64,000 nt of DNA, from the NCBI RefSeq assembly GCF_007856155.1, contig NZ_CP042266.1, positions 868,001-932,000 of the forward strand, read 5' to 3'. Source of the stretch: Streptomyces qinzhouensis (GTDB taxonomy: Bacteria > Actinomycetota > Actinomycetes > Streptomycetales > Streptomycetaceae). Shown piece by piece: positions 40,321 to 55,692 of this stretch (position 1 is the first letter of the stretch; the number at the start of each line of letters is the position of its first letter). The translations under genes and the position numbers were made by a program. The notes under the pieces were generated by a model. It did not search any database. It was not told the DNA's origin and worked only from the letters and a program-made list of their open reading frames with translations.

Positions 40321-41165
40321 GCGCCCGCGCCTTCCGTGCCGGTGCCCGCCCCGGTGACCGGGAGCCGTGCGGCCAGCCAGCCGGGCGCCTGTGAGGGCCG
40401 GGGTTTCGAGGGTTCGTTCAAGGTGATCCGTTCGTGGATGCCGGCCGCGCGCGACAGCAGGGCGGCCACATAGGCGCGGCGCACCTCGTCCGTGCTGTCG
40501 AAGCCGGGCTCGTCGACCAGCCATTCGTCCGGCACCTCGGCCGTGACCTCGGTCAGCAGTTCCTCGGTGACGAGGGGGGCGAGTTCGGCGGCGGCCGCCG
40601 CGACGTCCGGCCGGAAGGGCGCGAGGGCGTGGTCGGACGCGTCGTACGGCTTGGCGGCGGACGCGGCGGCGCCCGGCCAGTTGTGGTGCCAGATCATGGT
40701 CGCGCCGTGGTCGATGAGCCACAGGTCACCGTGCCACACCAGCATGTTCGGGTTGCGCCAGGAGCGGTCGACGTTGTTGATCAGCGCGTCGAACCAGACG
40801 ACCCGCCCGGCCTCGGCCGGGCCGACCTCGTAGGCGAGCGGGTCGAACCCGATGGACCCCGGCAGATAGTCCATGCCGAGATTGAGCCCGCCGCTGGCCT
40901 TGAGCAGCTCCTGCACCTCCTGGTCCGGCTCCCCGAGCCCGATGACCGGGTCGAGTTGCACGGTGACCAGCTCGGGGATCCGCAGTCCGAGCCGGCGCGC
41001 GAGCTGCCCGCAGACCACCTCGGCGACCAGCGTCTTACGGCCCTGCCCGGCGCCGGTGAACTTGACGACATACGTCCCGAGATCGTCGGCCTCGACGATC
41101 CCGGGGAGCGAGCCGCCCTCACGCAGGGGTGTGACATAGCGGGTCGCTGTGACTTCGGTCAGCAT
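40317..41165 (-). CDS. HipA-like kinase domain protein
   Basis: 282 aa. It has a kinase-like core: TYVVKFTGAGQGRKTLVAEVVCGQLARRLG (Lys strand and helix), WFDALINNVDRSWRNPNMLVW (catalytic loop with D and N) and LWLIDHGATMIWH (metal-binding D). It lacks the HipA N-terminal subdomain and is not paired with a HipB antitoxin gene but with DUF3037. A protein or small-molecule kinase role is inferred from the fold. Its start lies 545 bp from, and divergent to, the nucleoside cluster. Confidence 0.85.
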   Translation of the reverse strand: MLTEVTATRYVTPLREGGSLPGIVEADDLGTYVVKFTGAGQGRKTLVAEVVCGQLARRLGLRIPELVTVQLDPVIGLGEPDQEVQELLKASGGLNLGMDYLPGSIGFDPLAYEVGPAEAGRVVWFDALINNVDRSWRNPNMLVWHGDLWLIDHGATMIWHHNWPGAAASAAKPYDASDHALAPFRPDVAAAAAELAPLVTEELLTEVTAEVPDEWLVDEPGFDSTDEVRRAYVAALLSRAAGIHERITLNEPSKPRPSQAPGWLAARLPVTGAGTGTEGAGA

Positions 41166-41709
41166 TTCCCCAGGCTATACGGCACGGCCCGGCGCGAATC
41201 CGCGGAGCGGGTCGCACCGCCCGGAGAGTGGTCTCGGCCGCATCGATGTCACCGATGAGCACCACCCTTTGGTCCGGTTTCGTCAGTAATTCACCATGAT
41301 GGAATAGTTTGCGGCCATAGGGGAGAACGTGATCGGGGCATGCGGCTCCGAGCCGGCCCGGGAACCGGATACCGGATACCGGATACCGGCGCCGGGACAT
41401 TCCGCAGACGATTCGGTTCAGTTGACCTGCTCATGGATTTTACGATTCTCTTTCCGCGGCCCTCAATTACCGTTCATCCGCTGATACTTATGTCGGCCGA
41501 TCGGGCTATTCACTCGCCGGTCTCAATGTCGCGCCGATCCCTTGCCCCATGCACCGCCGCCTGTCAGCGTGGTACTCGAAAGAGGCTTCAGGTAGAGATC
41601 GCACGATCTCACCCGGGCAACATCGCACCTGCGTGTATACGGATCGCCCGCGGTGCTCACCCTCTGTTCCAGGCATGCCACCCCTCCTTGAAAATGCGGG
41701 AGTCAGTCG
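41166..41709. other. Regulatory region upstream of the nucleoside cluster
   Basis: About 540 bp, clearly lower in G+C than its surroundings after 41280, with no gene recognised. It contains a heptamer repeat (41364-41389). TTGACC (41422-41427) and TACGAT (41441-41446) resemble promoter hexamers but are too closely spaced to trust. GGGAG at 41697-41701 is the ribosome-binding site of the first cluster gene. Confidence 0.5.
41364..41389. repeat. Heptanucleotide tandem repeat ACCGGAT
   Basis: Three full copies of ACCGGAT plus ACCGG, about 320 bp before the first gene of the peptidyl-nucleoside cluster. Direct heptamer arrays can serve as SARP-type binding sites, but those have an 11-bp period, which is not met here. 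Confidence 0.75.
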
Positions 41710-43065
41710 ATGCCGTCCATTACTGCCATGAACTCCGCGGCCCCTGCCACGCGATCAGGACTCTTAACCGTCGCACTCGTCGGGGCGGAATTCGGATGGG
41801 GAAGCTCGGGCAAACTGAGCGCGGTACTCTCCGCGCTGCACGACCGGCCGACACCTCCCCTGCGGTTTATCGGAATGGCGTCGGGACTGGGCCGGCCCCT
41901 CCTCGCCGAGCACACGGTGGACGGCTGGTACGACCTGCCGGACGATCCCGGCCGGATGACCCTCGCGGTCGACGAGCTCGTACGGTCACAGGGGGTACGG
42001 GCCGCCGTAGTCGTCCTGGACGGCGCGGCAGCGACGGCGCTGCTGTCCTCCGGCGTGCCCACCGTCTTCATCGACAGCCTGCCCTTCCTCTGGTCCGAGG
42101 GCGACCGGGCCGCCCTGCCGCTGGACGCGACGGTGTACTGCGCCCAGAAATCCGTCGAGCTGCCGCCCGAGTGCCGGACCGTCCTGGCCGACGCCCGGGG
42201 GCTGCGCTGGGTCGAGGCCGTCATCGCCCGGCCCCGCGCCGCCGAGCCGGAGCACGGCTCCCGGCGGGACGCGGGCCGGCCGTACCGCAGGGCGCTGGTC
42301 AGCCTGGGCGGACTGCGGGCACCGGGTCTCGATCCGGAGCACTACCCGCGCCTGGTCGTCCCGGCCGTCCTCGAGGCGCTCGCCGCCTACGGGATCGAAG
42401 AGGCGCACATCGCCGGCAACCTGCCCGGCGACCTGGCGGGCCGTCTCATCGACTCGTCCGCCGCCCCGCCGCGGACGACCGCCGGACCGCTCGGACACGG
42501 CGCGTTCCTGGACCGGCTGGGCGCCTGCGACGTTCTGCTCACCTCACCCGGTCTGACCACCCTGCTCGAAGCGGGCGGACTGAGCGTCCCCACCGTCTGC
42601 CTGCCACCGCAGAACCTCAGCCAGATCTTCAACGGCCGCTATCACAGCCGGGCGCTCGGGGCCGAGCTGCGGGTGCCCTGGCCCCAGGACGTGCTCGTCG
42701 AGGACGAGGCGCTGGCGCTGCGTTCGGAGGGCGAGAACCACGCTCTCGAACGGATCTACGGCGCGATCGGGGCCGCCGCGCGGGGCGACGACCGGCAGCA
42801 CATCGGCCACGCCCTGCGCGACGGCGTCCTGGACGCGCTGCACCGGTCCACCGGCGTCGGCCGGTGGGACACGCTCACCACGACGGTGGGCACCGGGGGC
42901 GCGGCCCAGGTGGCCGACGCACTGCTCGAAGTCCTGGGCGCGACCGTCCATTCTCCCGACCCGTCCGCCCCGCCCGCCCCGCCCGAGCCGCGCGAGCCGC
43001 GCGTTGCCGTCGGCGCGGAAGCCACTCGGCGCCGTTCCCCCCGCGCCTTCCCACCCGCCCCGTGA
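41710..43065 (+). CDS. blsD: Cytosylglucuronate synthase-like glycosyltransferase (BlsD/MilC type)
   Basis: 451 aa from ATG 41710. It is a GT-B-like protein: N-terminal VALVGAEFGWGSSGKLSAVLSAL glycine loop and a C-terminal donor-site region CDVLLTSPGLTTLLEAGGLSVPTVCLPPQ (about 275-300). The match is to my memory of the cytosylglucuronic acid synthases of blasticidin S and mildiomycin, which couple free cytosine to UDP-glucuronate. It is the first gene of the cluster; codon 19 is TTA (41764-41766), which puts the run under bldA control. The last ~35 residues are Pro/Arg-rich. The stop overlaps the next gene (GTGA). Confidence 0.8.
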   Translation: MPSITAMNSAAPATRSGLLTVALVGAEFGWGSSGKLSAVLSALHDRPTPPLRFIGMASGLGRPLLAEHTVDGWYDLPDDPGRMTLAVDELVRSQGVRAAVVVLDGAAATALLSSGVPTVFIDSLPFLWSEGDRAALPLDATVYCAQKSVELPPECRTVLADARGLRWVEAVIARPRAAEPEHGSRRDAGRPYRRALVSLGGLRAPGLDPEHYPRLVVPAVLEALAAYGIEEAHIAGNLPGDLAGRLIDSSAAPPRTTAGPLGHGAFLDRLGACDVLLTSPGLTTLLEAGGLSVPTVCLPPQNLSQIFNGRYHSRALGAELRVPWPQDVLVEDEALALRSEGENHALERIYGAIGAAARGDDRQHIGHALRDGVLDALHRSTGVGRWDTLTTTVGTGGAAQVADALLEVLGATVHSPDPSAPPAPPEPREPRVAVGAEATRRRSPRAFPPAP

Positions 43066-44078
43066 GTCGCCTGGAAGGTCTCCATCCCGTGCGTACACGC
43101 GATCGCTACCTCTTCATCAGAATTCTGGAAGCCTGCAACGCCGACTGCTTCATGTGCGAGTTCGCCCTCTCTCGCGACACGTTCCGCTTCTCCCTGGAGG
43201 ACTTCGACGACTTGGTGCCCAAGGCCAGGGACGCCGGGGTGGGCTATATCCGGTTCACCGGAGGCGAACCGCTGATGCACCCCGACGTGGTGGAGCTGGT
43301 GCGCGCGGGCACGGCCGCCGGGATGAAGATGTCCCTCATCACCAACGGCTCACTGCTGCCCCGGATGGCCGCTCCCCTGGCCGCGGCCGGTCTGGCCCAG
43401 GTGATCGTCAGCCTGGACGGCGCCTCGGGCGCCACCCACGATGTCTACCGGCGATCTCCCGGCATGTTCGACAGCGGGCTGCGGGGCCTGCGGGAGGCCG
43501 CCGCGCTCGGTGTCCTGCCGAGGGTCAACACCGTGGTGGGGCCGCACAACTACACCGAGATGCCACGGCTCCAGGAGGTCCTGACGGAGGCCGGGGTACA
43601 ACAGTGGGAACTGTCCGCGCTCAAGCTCGACCGCACGATCACCTACCCCGACGCCGACCACGTCCGCGACGTCTGCGATCCGATCTACAACGCCGACCCG
43701 GCCGCCCTGCTGGTCCCGATGGGCAAACGCTTCTACGGAGACACCCCGCAGGAACAGGAGCGCTACTTCACCCGGTCCGTCACGCCGCGCGCCGCCGAAC
43801 CGCTGTGCCACGTCGCCGACGACGTCATCTACGTGGACGGCAAGTACGGGCGGATGTACGCGTGCAGCTGTATCCCCCACCGGGAGAGCGACGACGGGCC
43901 CGGCGGCGCGCCCCTGCGGGAGCAGGGGGTGATCCGGCTCGACACCCCGGTGTTCCGGGCGCACGCCGACTACTTCCGCGAGCGCGGCCCCGAGGTGTGC
44001 AACGGCTGCTCCACCACCGCCGCCGGATACAGCGACGACGTGGCCCGGCTCGGGACGGTGGGAGCATGGCACTACTGA
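43062..44078 (+). CDS. blsE: Radical SAM cytosylglucuronate decarboxylase-like enzyme (BlsE type)
   Basis: 338 aa from GTG 43062, coupled to the previous stop; GTG 43089 with GGAAGG upstream is an alternative. The radical SAM CxxxCxxC cysteines are C25, C29 and C32 (CNADCFMC), followed by the GGE motif FTGGEPLMHPD. Further Cys near the C-terminus (YACSCIPH and VCNGCS) could bind an auxiliary cluster. BlsE decarboxylates cytosylglucuronate at C5' in blasticidin S biosynthesis; the neighbouring synthase gene makes the same reaction likely here. The last 13 bp overlap the next gene. Confidence 0.83.
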   Translation: MSRLEGLHPVRTRDRYLFIRILEACNADCFMCEFALSRDTFRFSLEDFDDLVPKARDAGVGYIRFTGGEPLMHPDVVELVRAGTAAGMKMSLITNGSLLPRMAAPLAAAGLAQVIVSLDGASGATHDVYRRSPGMFDSGLRGLREAAALGVLPRVNTVVGPHNYTEMPRLQEVLTEAGVQQWELSALKLDRTITYPDADHVRDVCDPIYNADPAALLVPMGKRFYGDTPQEQERYFTRSVTPRAAEPLCHVADDVIYVDGKYGRMYACSCIPHRESDDGPGGAPLREQGVIRLDTPVFRAHADYFRERGPEVCNGCSTTAAGYSDDVARLGTVGAWHY

Positions 44079-44980
44079 ACCGGGCCGGGGCGCCTCCGGC
44101 CGGCGGTGCGGCGCCCGGCCCGCGGGTGCTGCTGAGCGCCCGCGAGGACCAGCTGGACTCGACCCTCGCCCTCGGCCGGGTGGCCGCCCACCTCGGCGAC
44201 CTCCGCCGGGCCGGCCGGTCCGAGCCCGAACCGCCCCCGGTCGCGGCCCTGGTCTGCGACGACGTGGCTGCCACCGAGCGGCTCCTGACCCTGGGTGTGC
44301 CCGTGGTGCACCTGCGATCGGGGCCCGCCGGTGAAGCGCCGCCGGAGTCCGCGCTCGTACGGGTGCACCGGCCGGGGTGGCTGCCGCTGCCCGGGCCCCC
44401 GGCCCGGGGCGCACGGCCCACCGGAGTCCTCGCGCCCCGGCGCACCGGCAGAAGCCCGACCCGCTCGGGCACCCTGGTGCTGCTGTCCCTGTGGCACGTC
44501 CCCGAAGCCGAAGCGGGGGCCTTCGCCTCCGGGGCGCTGCGGGAACTGGCCGCCGCCGCGCTGCGGCGGACCGGGAGCTGCACCGTGGTCGCCGACACCG
44601 GGCTCGCACGCGTACGGTCCGCCCTGGCGGAGCATCCGGGCGTCCGGGTGCTCCGGGCCGCCGAGGCCGACCCGGACGCGCTCCATGCCGACGCCGCCGT
44701 GTTCCTCGCCTCGCCGGTCCTCGGGGCGCTCGCCCTCGCGCAGACGCGACGGGCACCGCTGGTACTGCTGCCACCGCTGGGGTCCGTCCAGCGGGCCCTC
44801 GCCGGAGAGGTCGGCGAGGTCCTGCCGTTGCCCACGGCCGACGATCCCGACGATCCGGGCCTGTGGTCACCCGCGGCCGCGGCCGGTCCGTGGCACCTGC
44901 TCGACCCGGCGGCGGACGACCTGCGCGGTGCGCAGCGGGTCGCCCGTACCCTCCGACAGCTCGCCCTCGCGCCCCTGTGA
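44066..44980 (+). CDS. GT-like protein of unknown function (slot of blsF)
   Basis: 304 aa from ATG 44066, overlapping the decarboxylase gene by 13 bp. I see no complete enzyme motif. The C-terminal region (AAVFLASPVLGALALAQTRRAPLVLLPPLGSVQRAL) resembles the donor-site region of the first cluster gene (VLLTSPGLTTLLEAGGLSVPTVCLPPQNLSQIF), and the N-terminus has a comparable start. It may therefore be a shortened GT-B relative that lost catalysis and helps the synthase, or an independent cytosine- or nucleotide-binding factor. Very high Ala/Leu/Arg content. Confidence 0.72.
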   Translation: MALLNRAGAPPAGGAAPGPRVLLSAREDQLDSTLALGRVAAHLGDLRRAGRSEPEPPPVAALVCDDVAATERLLTLGVPVVHLRSGPAGEAPPESALVRVHRPGWLPLPGPPARGARPTGVLAPRRTGRSPTRSGTLVLLSLWHVPEAEAGAFASGALRELAAAALRRTGSCTVVADTGLARVRSALAEHPGVRVLRAAEADPDALHADAAVFLASPVLGALALAQTRRAPLVLLPPLGSVQRALAGEVGEVLPLPTADDPDDPGLWSPAAAAGPWHLLDPAADDLRGAQRVARTLRQLALAPL

Positions 44981-45098
44981 ACCCGGCCCGCCGCGGGCCC
45001 GTGGCGCCCCCCGTTCACGCCGCCTCGTCAATCCGCCGGTCCGGCCCCGCCGGTTCCGGCCACCCCACCCACAGCGTCCGCGTCGTGCAGGAGCCGCC

Positions 45099-46265
45099 AT
45101 GTCCGACACCCTCCGCGAACCCGTACCCGCCACCCGCCCCGAACTGATCCGCCCCAGGGTCCCGGAGTCCGACTGGGACGACTGGCGCTGGCATATGCGC
45201 CGGCGCATCACCAACGTCGAGAAGGCCGGCCAGTGGATCAACCTCAGCGCCGACGAGGAGGAGGCCATCGCCGGGGTGGCGGGCAAGTACCGCTGGAGCG
45301 TCACCCCGTACTACGCCTCCCTGATGGACCCCGACGATCCCGGCTGCCCGGTCCGCCTGCAGGCGGTGCCGGCGCTCGGCGAACTGGCGGAGTTCCCGGG
45401 GGCCGAGGTCGACCCGGTCGGGGACACCTACTACCGCAAGACCAACCGGGTCGTGCACAAGTACCCGGACCGCGTGATCATGCTGATCACCGAGGCCTGC
45501 CCCGTCTACTGCCGCCACTGCACGCGCAAGTTCCACACGACCGACGTCGACGGCACCTACTTCCGTGACGACGAGGGCGGCTCCTTCGACGAGGACCTGC
45601 GCTACATCGCCGACCACCCCGAGATCCGGGACGTCCTGCTGACCGGCGGCGACCCCCTGTCCTACCAGGACGGCAAACTGGAGGAGATCGTCGCCGGGCT
45701 GCGGGCGATCCCCAGTGTGGAGATCATCCGGATCGGCAGCAGGTTCCCCGTGTTGCTGCCGCAGCGGATCACCGAAGACCTCTGCTCGATGCTCTCCCGC
45801 TACCACCCGGTCTGGCTGAACACCCACTTCAACCATCCGAAGGAGATCACGCCGGAGGCCGCGGCAGCCGTGGACCGGCTGCTCCGGCACGGCATCCCGG
45901 TCGGGAACCAGACGGTGCTGCTGCGCGGTATCAACGACGACGTCCCCACGATGCGCACCCTGATGACCGAGCTGCTGCGGATCCGGGTCCGGCCGTACTA
46001 CCTCTACCACTGCGACAACGTCACCGGGGTCTCGCATTTCATGACGACGGTGGAGAAGGGCTGGGAGATCATGGACGGCCTCCAGGGCCACATCACCGGG
46101 TTCGGCGTCCCGCAATACGTCCTGACCACCAGAATCGGCAAGATCCCGATCGCGCGCCCCTCCTTCACTCCCACTGCCGACGGCCTGCTGCTCCGCAACT
46201 ACCGAGGCCAGGAAATGGTCGTCGGCGGTGACGCGCAGCCGATCACGGAGTCCGACACCCGATGA
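45099..46265 (+). CDS. blsG: Arginine (lysine-type) 2,3-aminomutase, radical SAM/PLP
   Basis: 388 aa KamA-family protein. Radical SAM cysteines C134, C138 and C141 (CPVYCRHC), the TGGDPLS loop and the PLP lysine K348 (RIGKIPIARP) are present. Compared with lysine 2,3-aminomutase, one substrate-binding Asp is kept (YHCDNV), but the second, expected just before the PLP lysine, is replaced by Thr and the loop is shorter. This fits a different side chain. With the guanidino methyltransferase downstream, conversion of L-arginine to beta-arginine is the best reading. CAGGAG precedes ATG 45099; the stop overlaps the next gene by 4 bp. Confidence 0.85.
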   Translation: MSDTLREPVPATRPELIRPRVPESDWDDWRWHMRRRITNVEKAGQWINLSADEEEAIAGVAGKYRWSVTPYYASLMDPDDPGCPVRLQAVPALGELAEFPGAEVDPVGDTYYRKTNRVVHKYPDRVIMLITEACPVYCRHCTRKFHTTDVDGTYFRDDEGGSFDEDLRYIADHPEIRDVLLTGGDPLSYQDGKLEEIVAGLRAIPSVEIIRIGSRFPVLLPQRITEDLCSMLSRYHPVWLNTHFNHPKEITPEAAAAVDRLLRHGIPVGNQTVLLRGINDDVPTMRTLMTELLRIRVRPYYLYHCDNVTGVSHFMTTVEKGWEIMDGLQGHITGFGVPQYVLTTRIGKIPIARPSFTPTADGLLLRNYRGQEMVVGGDAQPITESDTR

Positions 46266-47443
46266 GCACACTCGACAAACGGCTCGGGCAGCGCTTCCTG
46301 CCCTACGGAGCGAACTACCTCGACTGGTCCGACATGCCGGAACTGCGAGAGGTGATCGAGCAGCAGGTCCTGTTCCGGTACCAGACCGAAACCGAGAGCA
46401 TGGCATCCCGGCTGGAGCGGACCGTGGCCGAACGGCTCGGTGTGGGCCACGCCTTGGCCGTACACAACTGCACGGAGGCGTTGCGGCTGGCGCTGATCTC
46501 CACCCGCCCGGCCGTCGGCGACCTGGTGCACATCCCGGCGGTGACATTCGTCGCGGTGGCCGGAGCGGTGCTGTCGTGCGGTCTGATCCCGGTGCTGGTC
46601 GACGCCGACGATTCGCTCTCCATGGACCCGACGCTGCTGCCGCCGGACGCGCAGCGGGTGATCACGGCCCATATGGAGGGCACCGTGGCACCGCTGCCGA
46701 CCGGTGTGCCGTACCTCGTCGAGGACTGCGCGCAGTCCCTCGGCGCGCGCTTCCCCGACGGCCGGTACGTCGGGACGGCGGGCTACGCCGGGACGTTCAG
46801 TTTCCACCACAACAAGGTCCTCACCTCGGGTGAGGGCGGGCTCGTCGTCACCGGCGCCGACGATGCCTGGGCGACCATGCGCCGCTATCACGACCACGGC
46901 TCGGCGCGGGTGCCCGGCCAGTACCCGACATGGAACGACGACGCCCACTTCGGGGAGAACTTCGTCACCAGCGAGCAGGTCGCGGCCGTCCAGTGCCAGC
47001 AGTTCCGCCACCTGGACGAGTTGCTCGCCGGACTGGAGCGGATGTACGCGATCGCCATGGCCGAACTGCCCGGCCGGACCGACCTGGAGGTCCTGCCCCG
47101 GGCCGTCGGCGACGTGAAGGTCAGCCTGCGGTTCCGGTGCGAGAGCAAGGAGCTCCGTAACGCCGCGGTGGCCGCGCTCACCGCGGCCGGCATCGCCAAC
47201 TGGACGCTCGGGAAGTATCTGCTGCCCGAGCATCCGGTGCTCACCGGCCGTCGGTCGCTCTACCGCGACGGCTTTCCCTGGAACCACGCCCCCAAGGGGC
47301 TCCTCGCCCTCAGCCGCGACGGCTTCGCCCGGACCAGGGACCTGCTGGACCGTACCCTGTGCCTGCCGCTCTCCCCGGAACTCGCGGAGAAGGAACAGGC
47401 CCTCGTGGCCAAGTCCGTCCGCCAGGTGCTGGAGGCGCTGTGA
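46262..47443 (+). CDS. blsH: DegT/DnrJ/EryC1/StrS-type PLP aminotransferase
   Basis: 393 aa. VHNCTEALRLAL (PLP phosphate site), VEDCAQSLGARF (Asp pairing with the pyridine N) and the Schiff-base lysine K185 in SFHHNKVLTSGEGG mark a sugar aminotransferase of the StrS family. In this context it would act on the decarboxylated cytosyl pentopyranose to install the C4' amine of a cytosinine-like sugar, possibly with dehydration chemistry. Coupled on both sides (ATGA and GTGA overlaps). Confidence 0.85.
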   Translation: MSTLDKRLGQRFLPYGANYLDWSDMPELREVIEQQVLFRYQTETESMASRLERTVAERLGVGHALAVHNCTEALRLALISTRPAVGDLVHIPAVTFVAVAGAVLSCGLIPVLVDADDSLSMDPTLLPPDAQRVITAHMEGTVAPLPTGVPYLVEDCAQSLGARFPDGRYVGTAGYAGTFSFHHNKVLTSGEGGLVVTGADDAWATMRRYHDHGSARVPGQYPTWNDDAHFGENFVTSEQVAAVQCQQFRHLDELLAGLERMYAIAMAELPGRTDLEVLPRAVGDVKVSLRFRCESKELRNAAVAALTAAGIANWTLGKYLLPEHPVLTGRRSLYRDGFPWNHAPKGLLALSRDGFARTRDLLDRTLCLPLSPELAEKEQALVAKSVRQVLEAL

Positions 47444-48678
47444 GCGACGCCGAAGTGCTGTTGATGGTGGACGACCGGCCGTCGTCCTTCACCCGCTACG
47501 CGGCCCGGGAGCTGGCCGGCCGGCTGGTCCTGCTGCGGTTCGCCGACGCCCGCCCCGACCTGCCGGAGGACTATCTGCGGGAGACCGCGCATCTGCCCGC
47601 CTTCCGGGTGCGCGAGGGCGCCTCGCCGGCCGAGGAGGCCCGGCGGTACCGGGATTGGGCGGCCGGGCTGCCGACGCCGCCGACCCGGTTCTGCAACCCC
47701 TCGGAGCCCCGGCAGGCCGTGGCCCAGCGGTTCGCGGAGCTGGCCGGCCTGCCGCACCTGACCGGGCGGCAGGTGGCCCTGGTCCGGGACAAGGCCGTCA
47801 TGAAGTCGCGCTTCCGCGAACTGGGTCTGCGTACGGCGGAGTTCGCACGCGTACGCTCGGGTGCCGAGATCGAGCGGTTCGCCGGCCGGCACGGCTGGCC
47901 GGTGGTGCTCAAGCCGGTGGACTCCTTCGCCTGTCTGGACACCTACCGGCTCGACGATCCCGGCGGGCTCGCCGGGATCGACCTCGGGGCACGGGACTGG
48001 ATGGTGGAGGCATACCTCGGCGGCACCGAGTGGGAGGCCTGCGCGATCGTCCTCGACGGCGAGGTTCTCGACGTGTGGCCGAGTGCCATGCCCTGCCGTC
48101 CGCTGGACATCGTCGACGGCGCGATGAACGCCAATATCAGCGTCGGTACCGGCGAGGGTCCGCCGGTCGACCTGCGGGCGCTCGTCCAGCGCATCGTCAC
48201 GGGGATGGGTATCGACCACGGCTACGCCCATATGGAGTTCTTCCTGATCGACGGCGAGGTGTACGCCGGTGAGATCGGCATACGGCTCGCGGGCTGCGAG
48301 ATCCCCGCCAACCACGGCCACGCGTACGGCTTCGACGTGTTCGGCGCCACGCTGGCGGTCTACCTCGGCCGCCGCCCGGACCTCGACTACCGGGAGCGCC
48401 GCTGCGCCGGTGACCTGTTGCTGCCGCTGCCCGGCACCGGGCTGGTCCGGCGGATCACCTCCCGGGACGAGCTGCTGGGGATGCCCGGAGTCATCGACGC
48501 GGTGCTCAAGGTCGGCGCCGATGACACGGTGACGGCCCGCCGGGCCTCGCACAACGCCTCCGGATACGCGCATGTCGTGGGGGCTTCGATCGGGGAGGTG
48601 GAGAGCCGCATGCGCGAGGTGCTCGCCCGTTTCACGATCGAGGTGGTGGCGCGGGAGGCCCACACCGCCCCCACCTGA
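47440..48678 (+). CDS. ATP-grasp ligase (likely amide-forming step)
   Basis: 412 aa from GTG 47440. The central ATP-grasp core is visible: ALVRDKAVMKSRFRELGLRT, the ATP-binding WPVVLKPVDSFACLDTYRL, MVEAYLGGTEWEACAIVLDG and the Mg-binding HMEFFLIDGEVYAGEIGIRLAG. In a beta-amino-acyl nucleoside cluster such an enzyme should join beta-arginine to the C4' amine of the sugar (position of blsI). Substrates are inferred from context. It overlaps the aminotransferase gene by 4 bp. Confidence 0.83.
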   Translation: MSDAEVLLMVDDRPSSFTRYAARELAGRLVLLRFADARPDLPEDYLRETAHLPAFRVREGASPAEEARRYRDWAAGLPTPPTRFCNPSEPRQAVAQRFAELAGLPHLTGRQVALVRDKAVMKSRFRELGLRTAEFARVRSGAEIERFAGRHGWPVVLKPVDSFACLDTYRLDDPGGLAGIDLGARDWMVEAYLGGTEWEACAIVLDGEVLDVWPSAMPCRPLDIVDGAMNANISVGTGEGPPVDLRALVQRIVTGMGIDHGYAHMEFFLIDGEVYAGEIGIRLAGCEIPANHGHAYGFDVFGATLAVYLGRRPDLDYRERRCAGDLLLPLPGTGLVRRITSRDELLGMPGVIDAVLKVGADDTVTARRASHNASGYAHVVGASIGEVESRMREVLARFTIEVVAREAHTAPT

Positions 48679-48760
48679 CCGGCGCCCGTGCCGTCCGCCC
48701 GAACAGCGGCCCGGCACCCGACCCGGCCGCTCCTCGCGGCCGACGAACGGAGACCGACAC

Positions 48761-49987
48761 GTGACCAGCGGCCTGCCCCGTCGCTTCCTCGACCTGCTCA
48801 CACGTCCCCGGGTGGCCGGGGCCGCCTGGTGGAGCGTCGTCTCCAGACTGCCGGTCTACCTGATGTCACTGGCCCTCGTCCTGACCGTCCGTGAACAAGG
48901 CGGCAGTTACGCCCAGGCCGGTCTGGTCGCCGCCCTGTACACGCTCGGGATGGCCCTGGGCAGCCCGCTGATCGCCCGCCGCCTCGACCGCGGCGGCCGG
49001 GCGGCGGTGCTGACAGCGACCGCCGTCGCCTACCCGGCGGCACTCGCCGTCCTGGTATGGGCGACCCGCCCGGGCGGCTGGGCGCAGCCGGTGACGGCGT
49101 TCACGGCGGGGGTGGTGCTGCCGCCCGCGAACGCCTGCATGCGCTCGCTGTGGGCGCGGCTGCCGCTCCGCAAGGAGGAACGCGAGACGGCCTACCTCTG
49201 GGAGGCGCTGCTCACCGAGGTCCTGGTGATCGGCGCGCCGCTGATGCTGGCGGCGCTGATGCTGGCCGGCTCGGCGGGCCTGGCGCTGACGGTGATCGCG
49301 GTGACGGGCGGACTGGGCGCGCTCGGGCTCGCGTACACCCGGTTGCCCGCCGGCACCGAGGGCGCGCCGACGGCGCCGAAGGGCCCGCGCCGCGCACTGG
49401 GCCCGCTGCGTGAGCCGGCCCTGCTGGCGCTGACCGTCATCATGGCCGTCTCCGCGGTGCCCATCGGTCTGCTGACCCTGGCGATCCCGGCGTTCACCGA
49501 CCGGCACGGCGCTCCGGGCGGCGCGGGCGTGGTGTACGCCTGCTGGGGGGTCGGCAGCGCGCTGGGCGCCGTCTGGCTCGGCCGGTCCCAGTCCGAGGTG
49601 GCCCCGGAGGTACGGCTGCCCCGGCTGCTGCTGGCCTACGCCGTCGGCACCGGGCTGACGCTGCTCGCGGGCTCCCCGTTGGGCCTGGCCGTGGCGCTCG
49701 CGGTGGGCAGCGCACCCATCGCCCTGGTCTCCGCCACCGAGATGAGCCTGGTGAGCGGTATCGCCGACGGACGGTCCATGGCGGAAGCGTTCACCTGGGC
49801 GTCCCTGGCCACCGTCCTGGGCGACGCGCTGGGCCAACAGGCCGGCGGGCTGCTGATGGACCCGTTCGGGCCCCGGGCGGTGTTCGCGGTGGCGACCGGG
49901 ACCGCCCTGGCCGCCGCCGGGCTGGCCTTCGTCTTCCGGGGGCTGCTGACCCGGCGGGCGGCGCCGACGGTGGAGTGCGCGGTATGA
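48761..49987 (+). CDS. MFS transporter (probable product exporter)
   Basis: 408 aa from GTG 48761, with GGAGA upstream. Twelve hydrophobic segments in two halves; between segments 2 and 3 lies the MFS loop ALYTLGMALGSPLIARRLDRGGR. It sits inside the nucleoside cluster, so export of the final or capped nucleoside and self-protection are likely. No separate resistance deaminase or acetyltransferase gene is visible in the run. Confidence 0.87.
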   Translation: MTSGLPRRFLDLLTRPRVAGAAWWSVVSRLPVYLMSLALVLTVREQGGSYAQAGLVAALYTLGMALGSPLIARRLDRGGRAAVLTATAVAYPAALAVLVWATRPGGWAQPVTAFTAGVVLPPANACMRSLWARLPLRKEERETAYLWEALLTEVLVIGAPLMLAALMLAGSAGLALTVIAVTGGLGALGLAYTRLPAGTEGAPTAPKGPRRALGPLREPALLALTVIMAVSAVPIGLLTLAIPAFTDRHGAPGGAGVVYACWGVGSALGAVWLGRSQSEVAPEVRLPRLLLAYAVGTGLTLLAGSPLGLAVALAVGSAPIALVSATEMSLVSGIADGRSMAEAFTWASLATVLGDALGQQAGGLLMDPFGPRAVFAVATGTALAAAGLAFVFRGLLTRRAAPTVECAV

Positions 49988-50095
49988 CGGCCGCGACCGC
50001 CGGCCGAGGCCCCCCACCGGCCGTTCCCGCATACCGCTGCCCCCACTCCCGCCCCTTCCCCCGCGCCCCGCCGCGGGCAACACGAGGTGTCCACC

Positions 50096-51979
50096 ATGAA
50101 CGCCGCGCTCACCGAGCAGCGAGCCGACCGGCCGTCCGGGCCGGCCCCCCTGTTCCGTCCCGTCACCCGGCGGGAGTTCGCCCGGGCCGTCCGGGAGTTC
50201 CTGGGCTCCCCCCGGCATCTGCCGGTGCCGGTCCCGACCGAGGACCGCGCCGATCTGACGGAGAGCGTCGAACTCGCCGGCCGCCTGTACGGCGGACTGC
50301 GGCAGCCGCACCCCCTGGACGTCGGTATCGTCCTCGGCCGGGCGCACCTGCCGGAAGGGCTCCCGGAGCTGGCCCGTCCTTTCGCCCGCGCGTGGGCGGG
50401 CGAGGAAGAACTGGCCGACATCACCGCGTTCCGGGCCCGGCACGGCGGTTCGCTGCTGGTCGTCGGCTGTTACGACCGGCTCACGCTCGACCCCGTACGA
50501 GCCCTGCTGATGGCGACCTACCGCGGCGCCCGGCACGGACTGACGCTGCTGAGCGGCCGCGACGGCGCCTCGGTCTGCTGGAACGTCGCCAAACAGTACG
50601 CGCGGCCGGCTCTCGACGTCGACGCGCTGGGCCTCTTCACCGACACCGACCGGCCGCCCCGGCCGCCCGGCGTTCAGGTCTTCGACGACCGGGACTTCGA
50701 GAGCGCGGACATCCAGGCGGAGATCCTGGGTACCCGATGGCTGCGGGTGGGCTTCCAGGGGCACGGCAAGGACGACAGCGTCAACCTCGGCGAGTTCACC
50801 ATCTGTGGTCTCAACGCCTCGGTCCCGGCCACGCCCGGAATCCTCGGCCCGCGCTGTGCGTACGGGCTGCCGTGCTACAAGCCGGAGGACAAGCTGGTCC
50901 CCCTCAACCGGGTGGAGGCCGTGGAGCTGGTGCTCAGCGCGTGCAACAGCGGCCCGCTCGCGGACCTCGCCCTGTACGACCCGAAGTACCAGCTGTTGCT
51001 GAACGCCCTCGACGGCCCGGCCCGTACGGTGGTCTCGGCCGTGTCCGTACACGACTCCGACCGGCCGGAGAACGTCGCCTGGATGCACGGCGCCCTCATC
51101 GGCGCGGACTCGGTCGACACCCTCAACGCCAGCCTGGCGGGTTCGCACCCCTACCCGGCGTTCATGCGCTTCGGACTGCCGGAGGCGCCGGAGGACACAC
51201 CGGCACCGCCCGCTCCGGCGGACCACCGCCCGGACCCGCTGCTCCTGACCGCGGGCAGCCGGCTCACCGCCTATCTCGCCTCGGACCTGCTGCCGCACAA
51301 CCACTCGCTGCGGCCCCGGCTGACGAAGCTGGCCCGGAAGGTGGACCTCTGGGTGGCCAGGCCCACCCATCTCGCCGACCAGTCCCCCGAGCAGATCAGG
51401 GCCTCGCTCACCGCGGATCTGCAGTCCCTCGACCATGTCATCGCCGAGCAGATCTCGGCCGACCCCGAGACCGAGCTGATGAACTACCCGGCGCACTTCG
51501 GTGACCGCAGCACCCTGGACCCGCGGGTCCAGGAGGTCGTCTGCCACTGCGGTCGCCCCGCGCAGGAGTTCACCCGGCGGGGTCTGCTCCCGCAGGTCCT
51601 GGACACCACGTGCGCCGTCTGCATGCGGTGCGGCGATGTCACCTTCCGGATTCCGGACGCGCCCGCCCTGCTCGCCCACGCCGCGGACGAGGCAGGGCAG
51701 GGCGGGGTACTGGAGGTCCGGGCCACGGTCACCGCGGCCCGGACGGGCCCGGTCCGGCTGGGCCTGTACGTACCGACCTATCTGCGCGCGGACACGACCG
51801 TGGAACCCGCCACCACCAGGCGCCGGCTCACCGGCGGGCGGGCCGAGGAAGTGCCGTTCCGGGTGCGGTTCGCGCCCGACACCGCCCCGCAGGCCTACTA
51901 CTTCACGGTATTCGCCGTACAGGACCTCGCCGTCTCCACCGCCCGGCGCCACTTCGGAGTCCTGCCCCGAACCGTCTGA
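50096..51979 (+). CDS. Caspase-like fold protein with C-terminal zinc-ribbon (slot of blsK)
   Basis: 627 aa from ATG 50096 (GAGG 8 bp ahead; GTG 50087 is less likely). Residues ~150-350 show a clan CD (caspase/gingipain/CHAT) pattern: HGLTLLSGRDGASVCWNVAK, then H223 in GFQGHGKDDS and C283 in LVLSACNSG, spaced as a His/Cys dyad. A Cys group (C483, C485, C506, C509, C512: CHC and CAVCMRC) looks like a zinc ribbon. A beta-rich C-terminal domain follows. I do not recognise the whole protein. By gene order it takes the place of blsK, which I recall as a tRNA-dependent leucyl transferase in blasticidin S. That assignment is not supported by any motif I can see. Confidence 0.75.
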   Translation: MNAALTEQRADRPSGPAPLFRPVTRREFARAVREFLGSPRHLPVPVPTEDRADLTESVELAGRLYGGLRQPHPLDVGIVLGRAHLPEGLPELARPFARAWAGEEELADITAFRARHGGSLLVVGCYDRLTLDPVRALLMATYRGARHGLTLLSGRDGASVCWNVAKQYARPALDVDALGLFTDTDRPPRPPGVQVFDDRDFESADIQAEILGTRWLRVGFQGHGKDDSVNLGEFTICGLNASVPATPGILGPRCAYGLPCYKPEDKLVPLNRVEAVELVLSACNSGPLADLALYDPKYQLLLNALDGPARTVVSAVSVHDSDRPENVAWMHGALIGADSVDTLNASLAGSHPYPAFMRFGLPEAPEDTPAPPAPADHRPDPLLLTAGSRLTAYLASDLLPHNHSLRPRLTKLARKVDLWVARPTHLADQSPEQIRASLTADLQSLDHVIAEQISADPETELMNYPAHFGDRSTLDPRVQEVVCHCGRPAQEFTRRGLLPQVLDTTCAVCMRCGDVTFRIPDAPALLAHAADEAGQGGVLEVRATVTAARTGPVRLGLYVPTYLRADTTVEPATTRRRLTGGRAEEVPFRVRFAPDTAPQAYYFTVFAVQDLAVSTARRHFGVLPRTV

Positions 51980-52026
51980 CCGCCCCTGGTGCCCGACCCG
52001 CCCCCACCCCACAGGGAGAAACGACC

Positions 52027-52677
52027 ATGAGAACCCCGAACATCTCGGAGCCGAACACCTCGCCCCAGGAGAAGCCGGCGATCGAGCTGATCGAGCAGGA
52101 CGGCCAGGTGACCCTCAGCATCGGCGGAGAGCAGGCCATGCAGGCCTGGGAACGAGACCTGATGTGGGCAAGCGCCGACCTGCTGTGCGAATACGGCAAG
52201 GACTTCTACGAGGTCGGGCTGGGCCTGGGCCTGTCCGCGCTGCGCATCGCCGGCAACCCGGCGACCCGCAGCCACACGGTGCTGGAACTCTTCGAAGAGG
52301 TCGAGGACCTGTTCCGGGCCCGGCACCCCCACCTGCCCGACAACCTCACGGTCGAGCGCGGCGACTTCTTCGAGCGAATCTTCGAACTGCCGTCGGAGAG
52401 CTTCGACGGGATCTTCTTCGACCCGGCCCTCGACATGGAGGTCTGGACGGACGCCGAGCTGTGGGCCCGGGTCATGCCGGAGGTCGTCCGGGTGCTGCGC
52501 CCCGGCGGCGTCTTCATCCCGTTCTTCAGCACCAAACCGGAGCTGCGCGGACAGTATCTCCCGCACTTCCGCCGGATCCGGGTCGAGCGGCACCCGTTCG
52601 TCGCCTACGACACCACCGAGTACACACACGGCGGCACCACCGGCGACGCCTTCATCCAGTGCTTTCTCAAGGACTGA
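52027..52677 (+). CDS. blsL: Guanidino N-methyltransferase (GAMT-like, BlsL type)
   Basis: 216 aa from ATG 52027, with GGGAGA upstream. It resembles guanidinoacetate methyltransferase: AMQAWERDLMWASADLL, SAM loop DFYEVGLGLGLSALRIA, SFDGIFFDPALDMEVW and RVLRPGGVFIPFFST. BlsL methylates the guanidino group of the beta-arginine moiety in blasticidin S; the same role fits here and supports arginine, not lysine, as the aminomutase substrate. Its last nine codons are repeated just downstream. Confidence 0.85.
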   Translation: MRTPNISEPNTSPQEKPAIELIEQDGQVTLSIGGEQAMQAWERDLMWASADLLCEYGKDFYEVGLGLGLSALRIAGNPATRSHTVLELFEEVEDLFRARHPHLPDNLTVERGDFFERIFELPSESFDGIFFDPALDMEVWTDAELWARVMPEVVRVLRPGGVFIPFFSTKPELRGQYLPHFRRIRVERHPFVAYDTTEYTHGGTTGDAFIQCFLKD

Positions 52678-52711
52678 ACCGTCATCCAGTGCTTCCTCGA
52701 GGACTGACCGG
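52652..52711. repeat. 30-bp tandem duplication of the methyltransferase gene end
   Basis: 52652-52681 and 52682-52711 agree at 26 of 30 positions. The second copy starts 4 bp after the stop and repeats the last eight codons and the TGA (TCATCCAGTGCTTcCTCgAG). Confidence 0.9.
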
Positions 52712-52771
52712 CCCGCCGGTCGGCCGCCCGCACCCGACACCGCGCACCAGCACCACTCCGGAGGTACTCCC

Positions 52772-53368
52772 ATGACCATCACACCGCCCCCCGGCCCCCC
52801 TGGCTCCTTTGGCTCCCGCCCCGACCCGGGCATCCGCTCGGTCTTCCTCGCCGGCCCCTTCATCCAGCTCCTGGACCCCGAGACGGGAAGGATGCCGGCC
52901 GCCGCCCGGGGCCCGTTCGATGTCCTGATCAAGCACTTCGAGGCACGGGGACTCTCGGTGCACAACGCCCACCGCCGCGAGGCGTGGGGGGCGGAACTGA
53001 TGCGTCCGGAGCAGTGCACGAAACTCGATCAGGACGAGATCCGCAAGGCAGATGTCTTCGTGGCCCTGCCGGGCCACCCGGCCTCGCCGGGGACGCATAT
53101 CGAGATCGGGTGGGCCAGCGCCTTCGGCAAGCCGATCGTCCTGCTGCTGGAGCGCGACAAGGAGTACACCTTCCTGGTCCAGGGCCTGCACACGGTCGCG
53201 ACGGTGGAGTACGTGGTCCATACGGACATCGCCGCCTGTCTGCCCGCCGTCGACCGGGCGGTTGACCTGGCGGTCCTGCGACAGCGGGAAGGCGACGGCG
53301 GCCGGTCGCCGGCCGGTCCGATCCAGCCGCGCGAAACCCCGGCGCCGACTCCGCTGGAGAACGCTTGA
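52772..53368 (+). CDS. blsM: CMP N-glycosidase-like hydrolase (BlsM/MilB type)
   Basis: 198 aa of the nucleoside 2-deoxyribosyltransferase-like fold. SVFLAGPFIQLLD at the N-terminus binds the ribose phosphate; DVFVALPGHPASPGTHIEIGWASAFGKPIVLL holds the catalytic Glu (E111). BlsM and MilB hydrolyse CMP (or hydroxymethyl-CMP) to free cytosine, the first pathway step. No hydroxymethylase gene is nearby, so CMP is the expected substrate. GGAGGT at 52760-52765. The stop overlaps the peptidase start (TTGA). Confidence 0.85.
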   Translation: MTITPPPGPPGSFGSRPDPGIRSVFLAGPFIQLLDPETGRMPAAARGPFDVLIKHFEARGLSVHNAHRREAWGAELMRPEQCTKLDQDEIRKADVFVALPGHPASPGTHIEIGWASAFGKPIVLLLERDKEYTFLVQGLHTVATVEYVVHTDIAACLPAVDRAVDLAVLRQREGDGGRSPAGPIQPRETPAPTPLENA

Positions 53369-54732
53369 GCAGGTCCGCCCGGCTCCTGACGGTCGTTCTC
53401 GGGTGCTTCGCGCTGCTGGCCTCCCTGCCGGGCGGCACACCGCCCGGCAACGAGCGGCACCCCGGCTCCAGCCGGACACCGGCCTCGGCCGCCTACACGG
53501 TCGAGCTGGCCGGTGACTCCTCGGGAGGCCAGTGGTCCGGGCACCAGCGCGTGACGTTCACCCAGGTCTCGGTGGATCCGCTCCGGGAAGTCTTCCTCCG
53601 GCTGTGGGGCAACGCCCCTGGGGGCTGCTCGGCACCGGCGGTCACCGTGACGGACCTCGTCGGGGGCACCGCGGACGGCCTCCGGGTCGGATGCACGGCG
53701 CTGCGGATCGCCCTGCCGGAGCCGCTCGGGCCCGGCGAGCGCCACACGATCGGCTTCGACTTCACCGTACGGGCCCCCGAACTCGCCGACAGCGCGGGAA
53801 GGTTCGGCCGACACGGGGCGTACAGCCACTTCGGCAACGCCCTGCCGGTGCTCGCGGTCCGGGACGGCGCGGGCTGGCACCTCGACCCGTTCACCGGTAC
53901 CGGGGAGTCCTTCTACACCCTGGCCGCCGACTTCACCGTGGTGCTCGACCACCCGTCCGCACTCCAGGTGCCCGCCACCGGCAGCGCGACCGACACCCCG
54001 GGGACCGCCGGACGGACCGTCACCACGGTGACGGCCCGCGAGGTGCGTGACTTCGCCTGGTCCGCGGGCCCGTTCGACACCGTCTCCGACGTCTCCGCGG
54101 GCGGGGTCACGATCAAGGTCCACAGCGGGGCCGGTATCGCGGCGGCGGACGCCCGGGCCATGCTGGCCGCCGCCGGTTCCGGGCTGGACACGCACGCCCG
54201 CGCGTTCGGCGCCTACCCCTACACCGAGCTGGACGTCGTGGTGGACAACGACCTCTGGTTCAGCGGCATGGAGTACCCGGGGTTCGTCCTGAACCGGGTG
54301 AAGACCTCCGCCCTCATTCACGAGATCGCCCACCAGTGGTGGTACGGCGTCGTCGGGGACGACCAGTACCGCCGGCCCTGGCTGGACGAGTCCTTCGCCG
54401 AGTACGCCACCGAACTCGCCCTCGGCCGCGACGGCTCGGGCTGCTGGAGAGCCGTCGAGTGGTCGACACCGCGGGAGCGGATCACCAACGGCATGGCGTA
54501 CTGGGACGAACATCCCGACCGGTACGAGGACGTCGTCTACGGCTACGGCGCCTGCGCGCTGCACGACCTGCGCCGGAGGATCGGGGCCGACGCGATGACC
54601 CGTCTGCTCCGCGGGTACGTCCGTACCCACCGGTACGGCGTGAGCACCACGTCCGCCTTCAAGGCCGCCGCCCGGGCCGCGACCGCCGAGGATCTGACCC
54701 GGTTCTGGGCCGACCACCGGATCGATGGCTGA
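53365..54732 (+). CDS. Secreted M1 family metallo-aminopeptidase
   Basis: 455 aa from TTG 53365, which overlaps the CMP hydrolase stop by 4 bp. A signal peptide (RLLTVVLGCFALLASLPGG) points to export. The zinc site H319-E320-x-x-H323 with E342 eighteen residues on (HEIAHQWW...DESFAEY), the exopeptidase-type SGMEYPG (E303) and a catalytic Tyr (VVYGYG) are intact. It is about half the length of PepN, without the C-terminal helical domain. Being coupled to the nucleoside cluster, it may trim an aminoacyl-capped product outside the cell, as PepN1 does for leucyl-blasticidin S. Confidence 0.85.
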   Translation: MSRSARLLTVVLGCFALLASLPGGTPPGNERHPGSSRTPASAAYTVELAGDSSGGQWSGHQRVTFTQVSVDPLREVFLRLWGNAPGGCSAPAVTVTDLVGGTADGLRVGCTALRIALPEPLGPGERHTIGFDFTVRAPELADSAGRFGRHGAYSHFGNALPVLAVRDGAGWHLDPFTGTGESFYTLAADFTVVLDHPSALQVPATGSATDTPGTAGRTVTTVTAREVRDFAWSAGPFDTVSDVSAGGVTIKVHSGAGIAAADARAMLAAAGSGLDTHARAFGAYPYTELDVVVDNDLWFSGMEYPGFVLNRVKTSALIHEIAHQWWYGVVGDDQYRRPWLDESFAEYATELALGRDGSGCWRAVEWSTPRERITNGMAYWDEHPDRYEDVVYGYGACALHDLRRRIGADAMTRLLRGYVRTHRYGVSTTSAFKAAARAATAEDLTRFWADHRIDG

Positions 54733-54797
54733 CCCGTCGTCACCGGCGGCGACACACGGCCCGCCCCGCGGCGGGTGGCGTACGGCCGCGTCCGGAC

Positions 54798-54881
54798 CGG
54801 TCACGGCCGTCGCCCGGCGCCGCCCCGGAAGCGCCGCCGGCCGCCGCGGTCCGTCTCAGCGGGCCCGGACGGCCGTGACCG
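54798..54881. terminator. Long inverted repeat at the end of the cluster
   Basis: Perfect 14-bp arms CGGTCACGGCCGTC (54798-54811) and GACGGCCGTGACCG (54868-54881) flank 56 bp. The right arm lies in the last codons of the convergent methyltransferase gene. It probably ends transcription of the nucleoside cluster. Confidence 0.6.
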
Positions 54882-55692
54882 TGTAGTAGTCGAGGATCCC
54901 GTCCTCGTAGGCGCGCAGGAAGTTCCGGGGCCAGGTCCCCGCGGCCCACCATCGGCTGAGCCACCGGTCCCACCCCGGCCAGACCTGCGCTCCGATCGGC
55001 TCGACACGGACTTCGGTGAGACCTGCCGCCGAGAACGCGTCCGCGAGGGCCGCCACCGGCCGGGCGAGGTCCAGGCCGTTCGCGTACGTCTCCAGCAGGT
55101 CCGCCAGCTGTCCGGGGCGGGTGGGGGCGTCGTCCACGGTGAAGAAGCTGGCCACGGCCGTACGGCCGCCCGGGCGGAGGATCCGCGCCGCCTCCTCGGC
55201 GAAGGCGGTGAGATCCGGGAAGTGCTGGGCGGCCTCGACACTGACGACGGCGTCGTACGCCTCGTCCTCCGACGGGATCCGCTCCGCGGCCCCCTGGACG
55301 AACCGGAGCCGGTCCGGCGCCCGGCGGAGGAGGTCCGTGTGCAGTTCGCGGGCGCGCCGCAACTGCTGCGGGTGGACGTCCAGGCCGGTCACCGCGGCGG
55401 GTCCGTACTCCTCCAGGGCGAGGGCGCAGCCCCGGCCGAGTCCGCAGCCCACCTCCAGCACCCGGTCCGGCCCGCGCAGCGCGGCGGCGTCCAGGACGTG
55501 CCGGTACAGATCCCGCTGGCTGCGGATCCGCTCCGGCTCCCCCGGCGGCCGGGCCGGATCGACCGCCTTCCAGTAGCCGAAGTTGATGAAGCCGCCGCCG
55601 AAGATCGGCTCCGCGCTCAGATCGGCCGGGCCGTACGTCTCACGCACCACGGGGCGCATGGGGGAATCCGCCCCGGGAACACCGTCCGCCAC
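54856..55692 (-). CDS. Class I SAM-dependent methyltransferase
   Basis: 278 aa from GTG 55692, with GGGAGG 5-6 bp ahead. The N-terminal NFGYWKAVDPARPPGEPERI segment and SAM loop VLEVGCGLGRGCALAL resemble small-molecule O/C-methyltransferases of the rifamycin/sterol type (Methyltransf_11). AAERIPSEDEAYDAVVSVEAAQHFPD and ILRPGGR follow as expected. It is convergent with the cluster, so membership in the nucleoside pathway is uncertain. Confidence 0.87.
   Translation of the reverse strand: MADGVPGADSPMRPVVRETYGPADLSAEPIFGGGFINFGYWKAVDPARPPGEPERIRSQRDLYRHVLDAAALRGPDRVLEVGCGLGRGCALALEEYGPAAVTGLDVHPQQLRRARELHTDLLRRAPDRLRFVQGAAERIPSEDEAYDAVVSVEAAQHFPDLTAFAEEAARILRPGGRTAVASFFTVDDAPTRPGQLADLLETYANGLDLARPVAALADAFSAAGLTEVRVEPIGAQVWPGWDRWLSRWWAAGTWPRNFLRAYEDGILDYYTVTAVRAR

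What the first reader, a model, noticed from the sequence alone, without database searches (positions are those of the whole stretch)
41710..54732. Blasticidin S-type peptidyl-nucleoside cluster in bls gene order
Eleven consecutive same-strand genes give cytosylglucuronate synthase, radical SAM decarboxylase, GT-like protein, 2,3-aminomutase, StrS aminotransferase, ATP-grasp ligase, MFS exporter, unknown caspase-like protein, guanidino methyltransferase, CMP hydrolase and secreted aminopeptidase. The first ten follow my recollection of blsD to blsM, with most starts overlapping the preceding stop. This predicts a cytosine-hexuronate-derived nucleoside carrying an N-methyl beta-arginine or a close variant. 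The peptidase at the end looks like an addition to the core set.
Basis: partly seen in the sequence, partly recalled or inferred. Interest (0 to 1): 0.85.

Follow-up and report, generated by a model that had tools for sequence, protein, structure and literature searches.

The report
Blasticidin cluster with its own uncapping peptidase
A soil bacterium carries the known gene set for the antibiotic blasticidin S plus an apparently secreted aminopeptidase gene that probably strips off the protective leucine outside the cell, completing in one operon a cap-and-uncap safety scheme that elsewhere relies on housekeeping enzymes.

Summary
Window 41710-53368 carries ten same-strand genes in exactly the order of the Streptomyces griseochromogenes blasticidin S cluster (50-82% protein identity); four match curated models over cut-off. 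The core is a known kind: 26 of 40 loci examined hold blsD-blsL in the same order. Starts overlap stops at 5 of 10 junctions, not most.

The new part is the eleventh gene, a short M1 aminopeptidase with a signal-peptide-like start. The published cluster has none; housekeeping PepN was shown to do the uncapping. The gene follows blsM in 7 of 28 clusters, which form one clade with a single apparent loss; beyond it the flanks are unrelated. Best reading: a dedicated extracellular enzyme turning leucylblasticidin S into blasticidin S (inferred, no activity data).

By-product: BlsK resembles Pur6, the puromycin amide synthetase whose mechanism is called enigmatic: same motifs and spacing, 19 residues fixed in both, reciprocal top local profile hits. 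BLASTP and whole-genome HMMER did not see this link, so it is likely, not proven.

The parts
41224..41358 (-). decayed stump (45 residues) of a divergent ABC-F gene that stands at this place in some related clusters
   Evidence: tblastn 49% identity, E 6e-4, to residues 2-46 of the L001 ABC-F protein; Walker A motif not conserved; described only
41710..43065 (+). blsD-like cytosylglucuronate synthase; TTA codon at codon 19
   Evidence: TIGR04467 595 bits, cut-off 300; TTA
43062..44078 (+). blsE-like radical SAM cytosylglucuronate decarboxylase
   Evidence: TIGR04466 668 bits, cut-off 400
44066..44980 (+). blsF-like CGA synthase-related protein (start 44066 or 44126)
   Evidence: TIGR04469 373 bits, cut-off 150; starts
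45099..46265 (+). blsG-like arginine 2,3-aminomutase
   Evidence: TIGR04468 645 bits, cut-off 600; start
46262..47443 (+). blsH-like DegT/StrS aminotransferase
   Evidence: PF01041 163 bits; 75% to S. griseochromogenes
47440..48678 (+). blsI-like ATP-grasp amino acid ligase
   Evidence: PF18603 LAL_C2; L-amino acid ligase 4wd3 E 3e-9
48761..49987 (+). blsJ-like MFS exporter
   Evidence: PF07690; start
50096..51979 (+). blsK-like tRNA-dependent aminoacyl transferase, gingipain/caspase-type fold, His223/Cys283, four-Cys motif 483/485/509/512
52027..52677 (+). blsL-like guanidino N-methyltransferase
   Evidence: PF08241; 82% to S. griseochromogenes
52772..53368 (+). blsM-like CMP N-glycosidase
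   Evidence: 5vto 'Blasticidin M' E 5e-61, MilB-type 4jem E 2e-53
53365..54732 (+). short M1-family aminopeptidase with signal-peptide-like N-terminus; predicted leucylblasticidin S hydrolase (TTG start overlapping the blsM stop)

Best explanation
This is a blasticidin S cluster of a variant type that encodes both halves of a leucine-cap cycle. Inside the cell BlsM frees cytosine, BlsD couples it to glucuronate, BlsE decarboxylates, BlsH aminates, BlsG makes beta-arginine and BlsI (likely) joins it; BlsK then caps demethylblasticidin S with leucine from its tRNA and BlsL methylates the capped form; BlsJ exports it. The eleventh gene product, an apparently secreted M1 aminopeptidase, removes the leucine outside the cell and so activates the antibiotic where it cannot hurt the producer. 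For orthologues, BlsE and BlsL activity is shown in papers I read in part or whole, BlsD is stated as known there, BlsK rests on a paper title (that leucyl-tRNA is the donor is recalled), BlsM on its MilB likeness. BlsG, BlsH, BlsI, BlsJ and the peptidase role are inferred from family or position.
Against: No activity or expression data. 21 of 28 clusters have no such gene beside them, among them the closest one, S. lavendulae, so it is not needed. In the other bls-linked loci measured the gene does not overlap blsM (gaps 35-119 nt in five). The own genome has six further M1 genes, which could do the job. The peptidase belongs to a broad family: 64 other genomes of 392 have a 59-63% relative (a lower bound, as few candidates per genome were scored), so general scavenging cannot be excluded. 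Yu et al. knocked out three genes downstream of the reference cluster's blsM without effect. The exopeptidase motif reads GMEYP instead of the usual GxMEN (recalled). No signal-peptide predictor was run.
Confidence: 0.72

Rival explanations
1. The core makes blasticidin S, but the peptidase is a general secreted scavenging aminopeptidase that travels with the cluster, and uncapping is still done by housekeeping PepN.
For: Relatives occur in 64 other genomes of 392, and the four long forms whose surroundings I read stand alone; six other M1 genes in the genome; 21 of 28 clusters do without it; PepN is known to do the reaction (PMC4664946).
Against: Fixed position and strand, co-inheritance with the core across genera and unrelated flanks beyond it; short form differs from the free long form.
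Confidence: 0.22
2. The cluster makes a blasticidin congener (for example demethyl- or leucyl-blasticidin) or is silent, and the peptidase acts on that congener.
For: No chemistry is available; blsF and blsI functions are not settled here; a TTA codon in blsD hints at conditional expression.
Against: All ten core genes, incl. BlsL (82%) and BlsG over cut-off, are present in the reference order.
Confidence: 0.06

Closest known systems
Blasticidin S cluster of Streptomyces griseochromogenes (bls)
   Same: All ten core genes, same order and strand, 50-82% identity
   Different: No peptidase after blsM; the next gene on that strand is a DUF2071 protein, and the literature reports PepN for uncapping
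Bls cluster of Streptomyces lavendulae CCM 3239 (L001)
   Same: 89% DNA identity over window 41223-53317
   Different: No peptidase beside it; a divergent ABC-F gene on the left, of which the window keeps a stump
Mildiomycin (mil) and mil-like clusters (L026, L027, L032, L036 as candidates)
   Same: CGA synthase, BlsE-like enzyme and a K-like transferase; MilH is called a putative tRNA-dependent aminoacyltransferase (PMC11784345, passages)
   Different: These four K-bearing loci show no arginine aminomutase G and no peptidase relative within the fetched stretch
Puromycin cluster: Pac/NapH cap cycle and Pur6
   Same: Works alike: cap inside and a hydrolase for the cap (N-acetylpuromycin N-acetylhydrolase is named in PMC11641026; that it is secreted is recalled); M28 peptidase genes near pur6 in L160, L161, L163; Pur6 resembles BlsK
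   Different: Cap is acetyl, peptidase family is M28 not M1; Pur6 makes the main amide bond, BlsK adds the cap

Membership tests
blasticidin S-type cluster | CGA synthase, BlsE decarboxylase and CGA-synthase-related protein over curated cut-offs | tested here: met
blasticidin S-type cluster | arginine 2,3-aminomutase over curated cut-off | tested here: met
   TIGR04468 645 bits, cut-off 600
blasticidin S-type cluster | same gene order and strand as the S. griseochromogenes cluster | tested here: met
   L146 D-M; L146 identified by BlsK 99.7%
blasticidin S-type cluster | makes blasticidin S | not testable with these tools
   needs culture and LC-MS
M1 aminopeptidase | HExxH-x18-E zinc site | tested here: met
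M1 aminopeptidase | GxMEN-type exopeptidase motif (recalled) | tested here: inconclusive
   reads GMEYP in 7 of 7 bls-linked proteins
secreted enzyme | signal peptide | tested here: inconclusive
   hydrophobic N-terminus by eye; no predictor run
leucylblasticidin S hydrolase | releases leucine from leucylblasticidin S | not testable with these tools
   enzyme assay needed
clan CD (gingipain/caspase-like) fold, for BlsK | fold, with His-Gly and Ala/Ser-Cys motifs at strand ends (motif rule recalled) | tested here: met
clan CD (gingipain/caspase-like) fold, for BlsK | proteolytic activity | not testable with these tools
   published function is aminoacyl transfer (title)
common superfamily of BlsK and Pur6 | sequence similarity above decoys | tested here: met
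   hhalign 35-44 against 63 decoys, max 30.2; reciprocal top local profile hits
common superfamily of BlsK and Pur6 | found by pairwise BLASTP or by profile search of whole genomes | tested here: not met
   BLASTP E 0.40; BlsK profile: 0 of 3 pur genomes; Pur6 profile: no BlsK hit in 7 bls or mil-like genomes
common superfamily of BlsK and Pur6 | Pur6 uses aminoacyl-tRNA and an Fe-S cluster | not testable with these tools
   tRNA is a hypothesis in PMC11641026

The most novel reading that the evidence does not exclude
Two linked claims. (1) One clade of bls clusters has built uncapping into the operon: BlsK puts leucine on inside, a co-encoded secreted M1 aminopeptidase takes it off outside, the counterpart of the puromycin Pac/NapH cycle with unrelated enzymes. 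(2) BlsK and Pur6 are one ancient superfamily of gingipain-fold, cysteine-bearing, aminoacyl-tRNA-dependent amide synthases, so the unexplained key step of puromycin assembly should work like BlsK, with tyrosyl-tRNA as donor and a metal site in the matching cysteines. (Odds for both together; lowered from 0.55 on re-check, because the shift control uses an alignment already optimised for similarity.)
Probability: 0.45. Interest if true: 0.75.

Novelty: new variant of a known kind. Interest (0 to 1): 0.55.

Why it matters
Blasticidin S is a rice fungicide and a standard selection drug whose producers release a varying mixture of capped and uncapped forms; where the cap is removed, and by what, was left open by the work I could read. 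A co-encoded, apparently secreted peptidase gives a direct test and a possible production tool. The BlsK-Pur6 link, if right, turns the enigmatic amide step of puromycin synthesis into a concrete, testable mechanism and defines a family of tRNA-dependent amide synthases built on a protease fold.

Tried and rejected
Product other than blasticidin type: put low because all core genes are present in reference order. Peptidase as a mere chromosomal neighbour: put low because flanks beyond it are unrelated while it stays. Several independent recruitments of the peptidase: suspected because close relatives (66-87%) were mostly listed on contigs without a listed BlsK (one of them, P0148, shares its contig length and strain name with a BlsK); the one further such relative whose surroundings I could read, L149, is bls-linked, and the listed proteins stand for 90% clusters, so that absence says little. 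The surroundings of the other close relatives were not seen. A conserved 37-base upstream motif: by its reverse complement it is the Walker A region of a divergent ABC-F gene, not a regulatory site. RNA elements: none at gathering scores in 40900-55000. tRNA gene in the cluster, as in cystocin-type clusters: none in the window; among 31 related loci 4 tRNA-like calls, one of them inside the L011 cluster on the opposite strand, not followed. BlsK as an uncharacterised enzyme: I reasoned it was the missing leucyl transferase before finding the 2021 title, so that part is known. BlsK versus Pur6: BLASTP E 0.40; whole-genome HMMER nothing; hhalign probability only 35% although E 4e-4. Foldseek for BlsK: no gingipain among the 50 rows shown, which are largely complement, sialidase and other beta-sandwich proteins; gingipain came up in the VIA second look. 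BlsK profile against PDB sequences: no hit. Not tested: whether peptidase-free clusters carry another peptidase family nearby. Script 40 ran without result (module name clash) and was replaced by script 41.

Full report
CHECK. The window is part of an 8.15 Mb chromosome in one contig (C1:868001-932000). Eleven + strand genes lie at 41710-54732 (codon-position GC alone picks 8 of the 11). Proteins 1-4 match the curated models for CGA synthase, BlsE, CGA-synthase-related protein and arginine 2,3-aminomutase over their cut-offs; the rest, BlsK apart, match DegT aminotransferase, LAL-type ligase, MFS, methyltransferase, nucleoside deoxyribosyltransferase-like and M1 peptidase. BlsM is closest to the solved 'Blasticidin M' 5vto and then to CMP/hydroxymethyl CMP hydrolases such as 4jem. 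Only 5 of 10 junctions overlap.

COMPARISON. A scan of named genomes with BlsE gave 37 loci. Together with three fetched loci (L146, L148, L149), 26 of 40 hold D-L, all 26 in one order and strand; 21 of the 26 also have M beside them. The other 14 are contig ends (L009, L014, L037), a locus cut by my choice of region (L149, F-M plus peptidase) or loci that lack several of the genes (ten). L146 is S. griseochromogenes: its BlsK is 99.7% identical to a protein so named. Identities to the window are D 55, E 80, F 50, G 82, H 75, I 68, J 67, K 70, L 82, M 63%. In 392 genomes of the genus, BlsI relatives at E <= 1e-120 occur in 11, the own genome included.

WHY UNCAPPING. Yu et al. 2015 (PMC4664946; parts 1 and 2 of 4 read; term search) extended the published cluster to look for the peptidase, concluded it lies elsewhere, identified PepN of E. 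coli and S. lividans as hydrolase, and argued that it should act outside the cell. Wang et al. 2017 (PMC5572114; read whole) showed that BlsL needs the leucine cap and reported that attempts to show the capping activity had failed. Wang et al. 2021 (PNAS), of which only the title was seen, in a reference list (not held), reports BlsK as a [3Fe-4S] and tRNA-dependent aminoacyltransferase. A co-encoded enzyme with an export-type N-terminus fits the gap that Yu et al. described. That it does the job is inference. A search for 'leucylblasticidin' gave only the 2015 and 2017 papers, and the listings of searches showed no paper about a bls-encoded peptidase. The library lacks most subscription journals.

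VERDICT. A new variant of a known kind of cluster, with a probable dedicated uncapping enzyme and, as a by-product, a testable bridge to puromycin biosynthesis.

Noticed in passing
window 41224-41358 (-); L001, L002, L008, L016, L022, L031 left of blsD: A divergent ABC-F gene (L001 copy: ribosomal protection-like NF000355 234 bits, below its 380 cut-off) adjoins blsD in 6 of 24 named clusters; the L016 copy matched in pieces; the window keeps only a decayed stump.
   Followed up: partly
L160:3991-6309, L161:3846-6137, L163:4521-6782 versus window 50096-51979: Pur6 of puromycin clusters resembles BlsK in motifs, spacing and profile score.
   Followed up: yes
L160:1273-2406, L161:699-2132, L163:1747-3015: An M28 peptidase gene stands near pur6 in all three pur loci, a parallel in position to the M1 gene here.
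   Followed up: partly
L028 (Desulfatitalea MAG), L034 (Lysobacterales MAG): BlsE, aminotransferase and CGA-synthase relatives close together outside Actinobacteria: possible cytosylglucuronate-type clusters of other phyla.
   Followed up: no
window 41764-41766: TTA leucine codon (codon 19) in the first gene and in none of the other ten; hints at bldA control.
   Followed up: no
L097, L098: The two Streptoalloteichus clusters share a right extension of several genes after blsL, including a distant blsM-like gene (36-39%).
   Followed up: no
L001 versus window 41223-53317: The cluster is 89% identical to that of S. lavendulae, yet no similarity was found on either flank of the fetched stretch, suggesting transfer of the whole unit.
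   Followed up: partly
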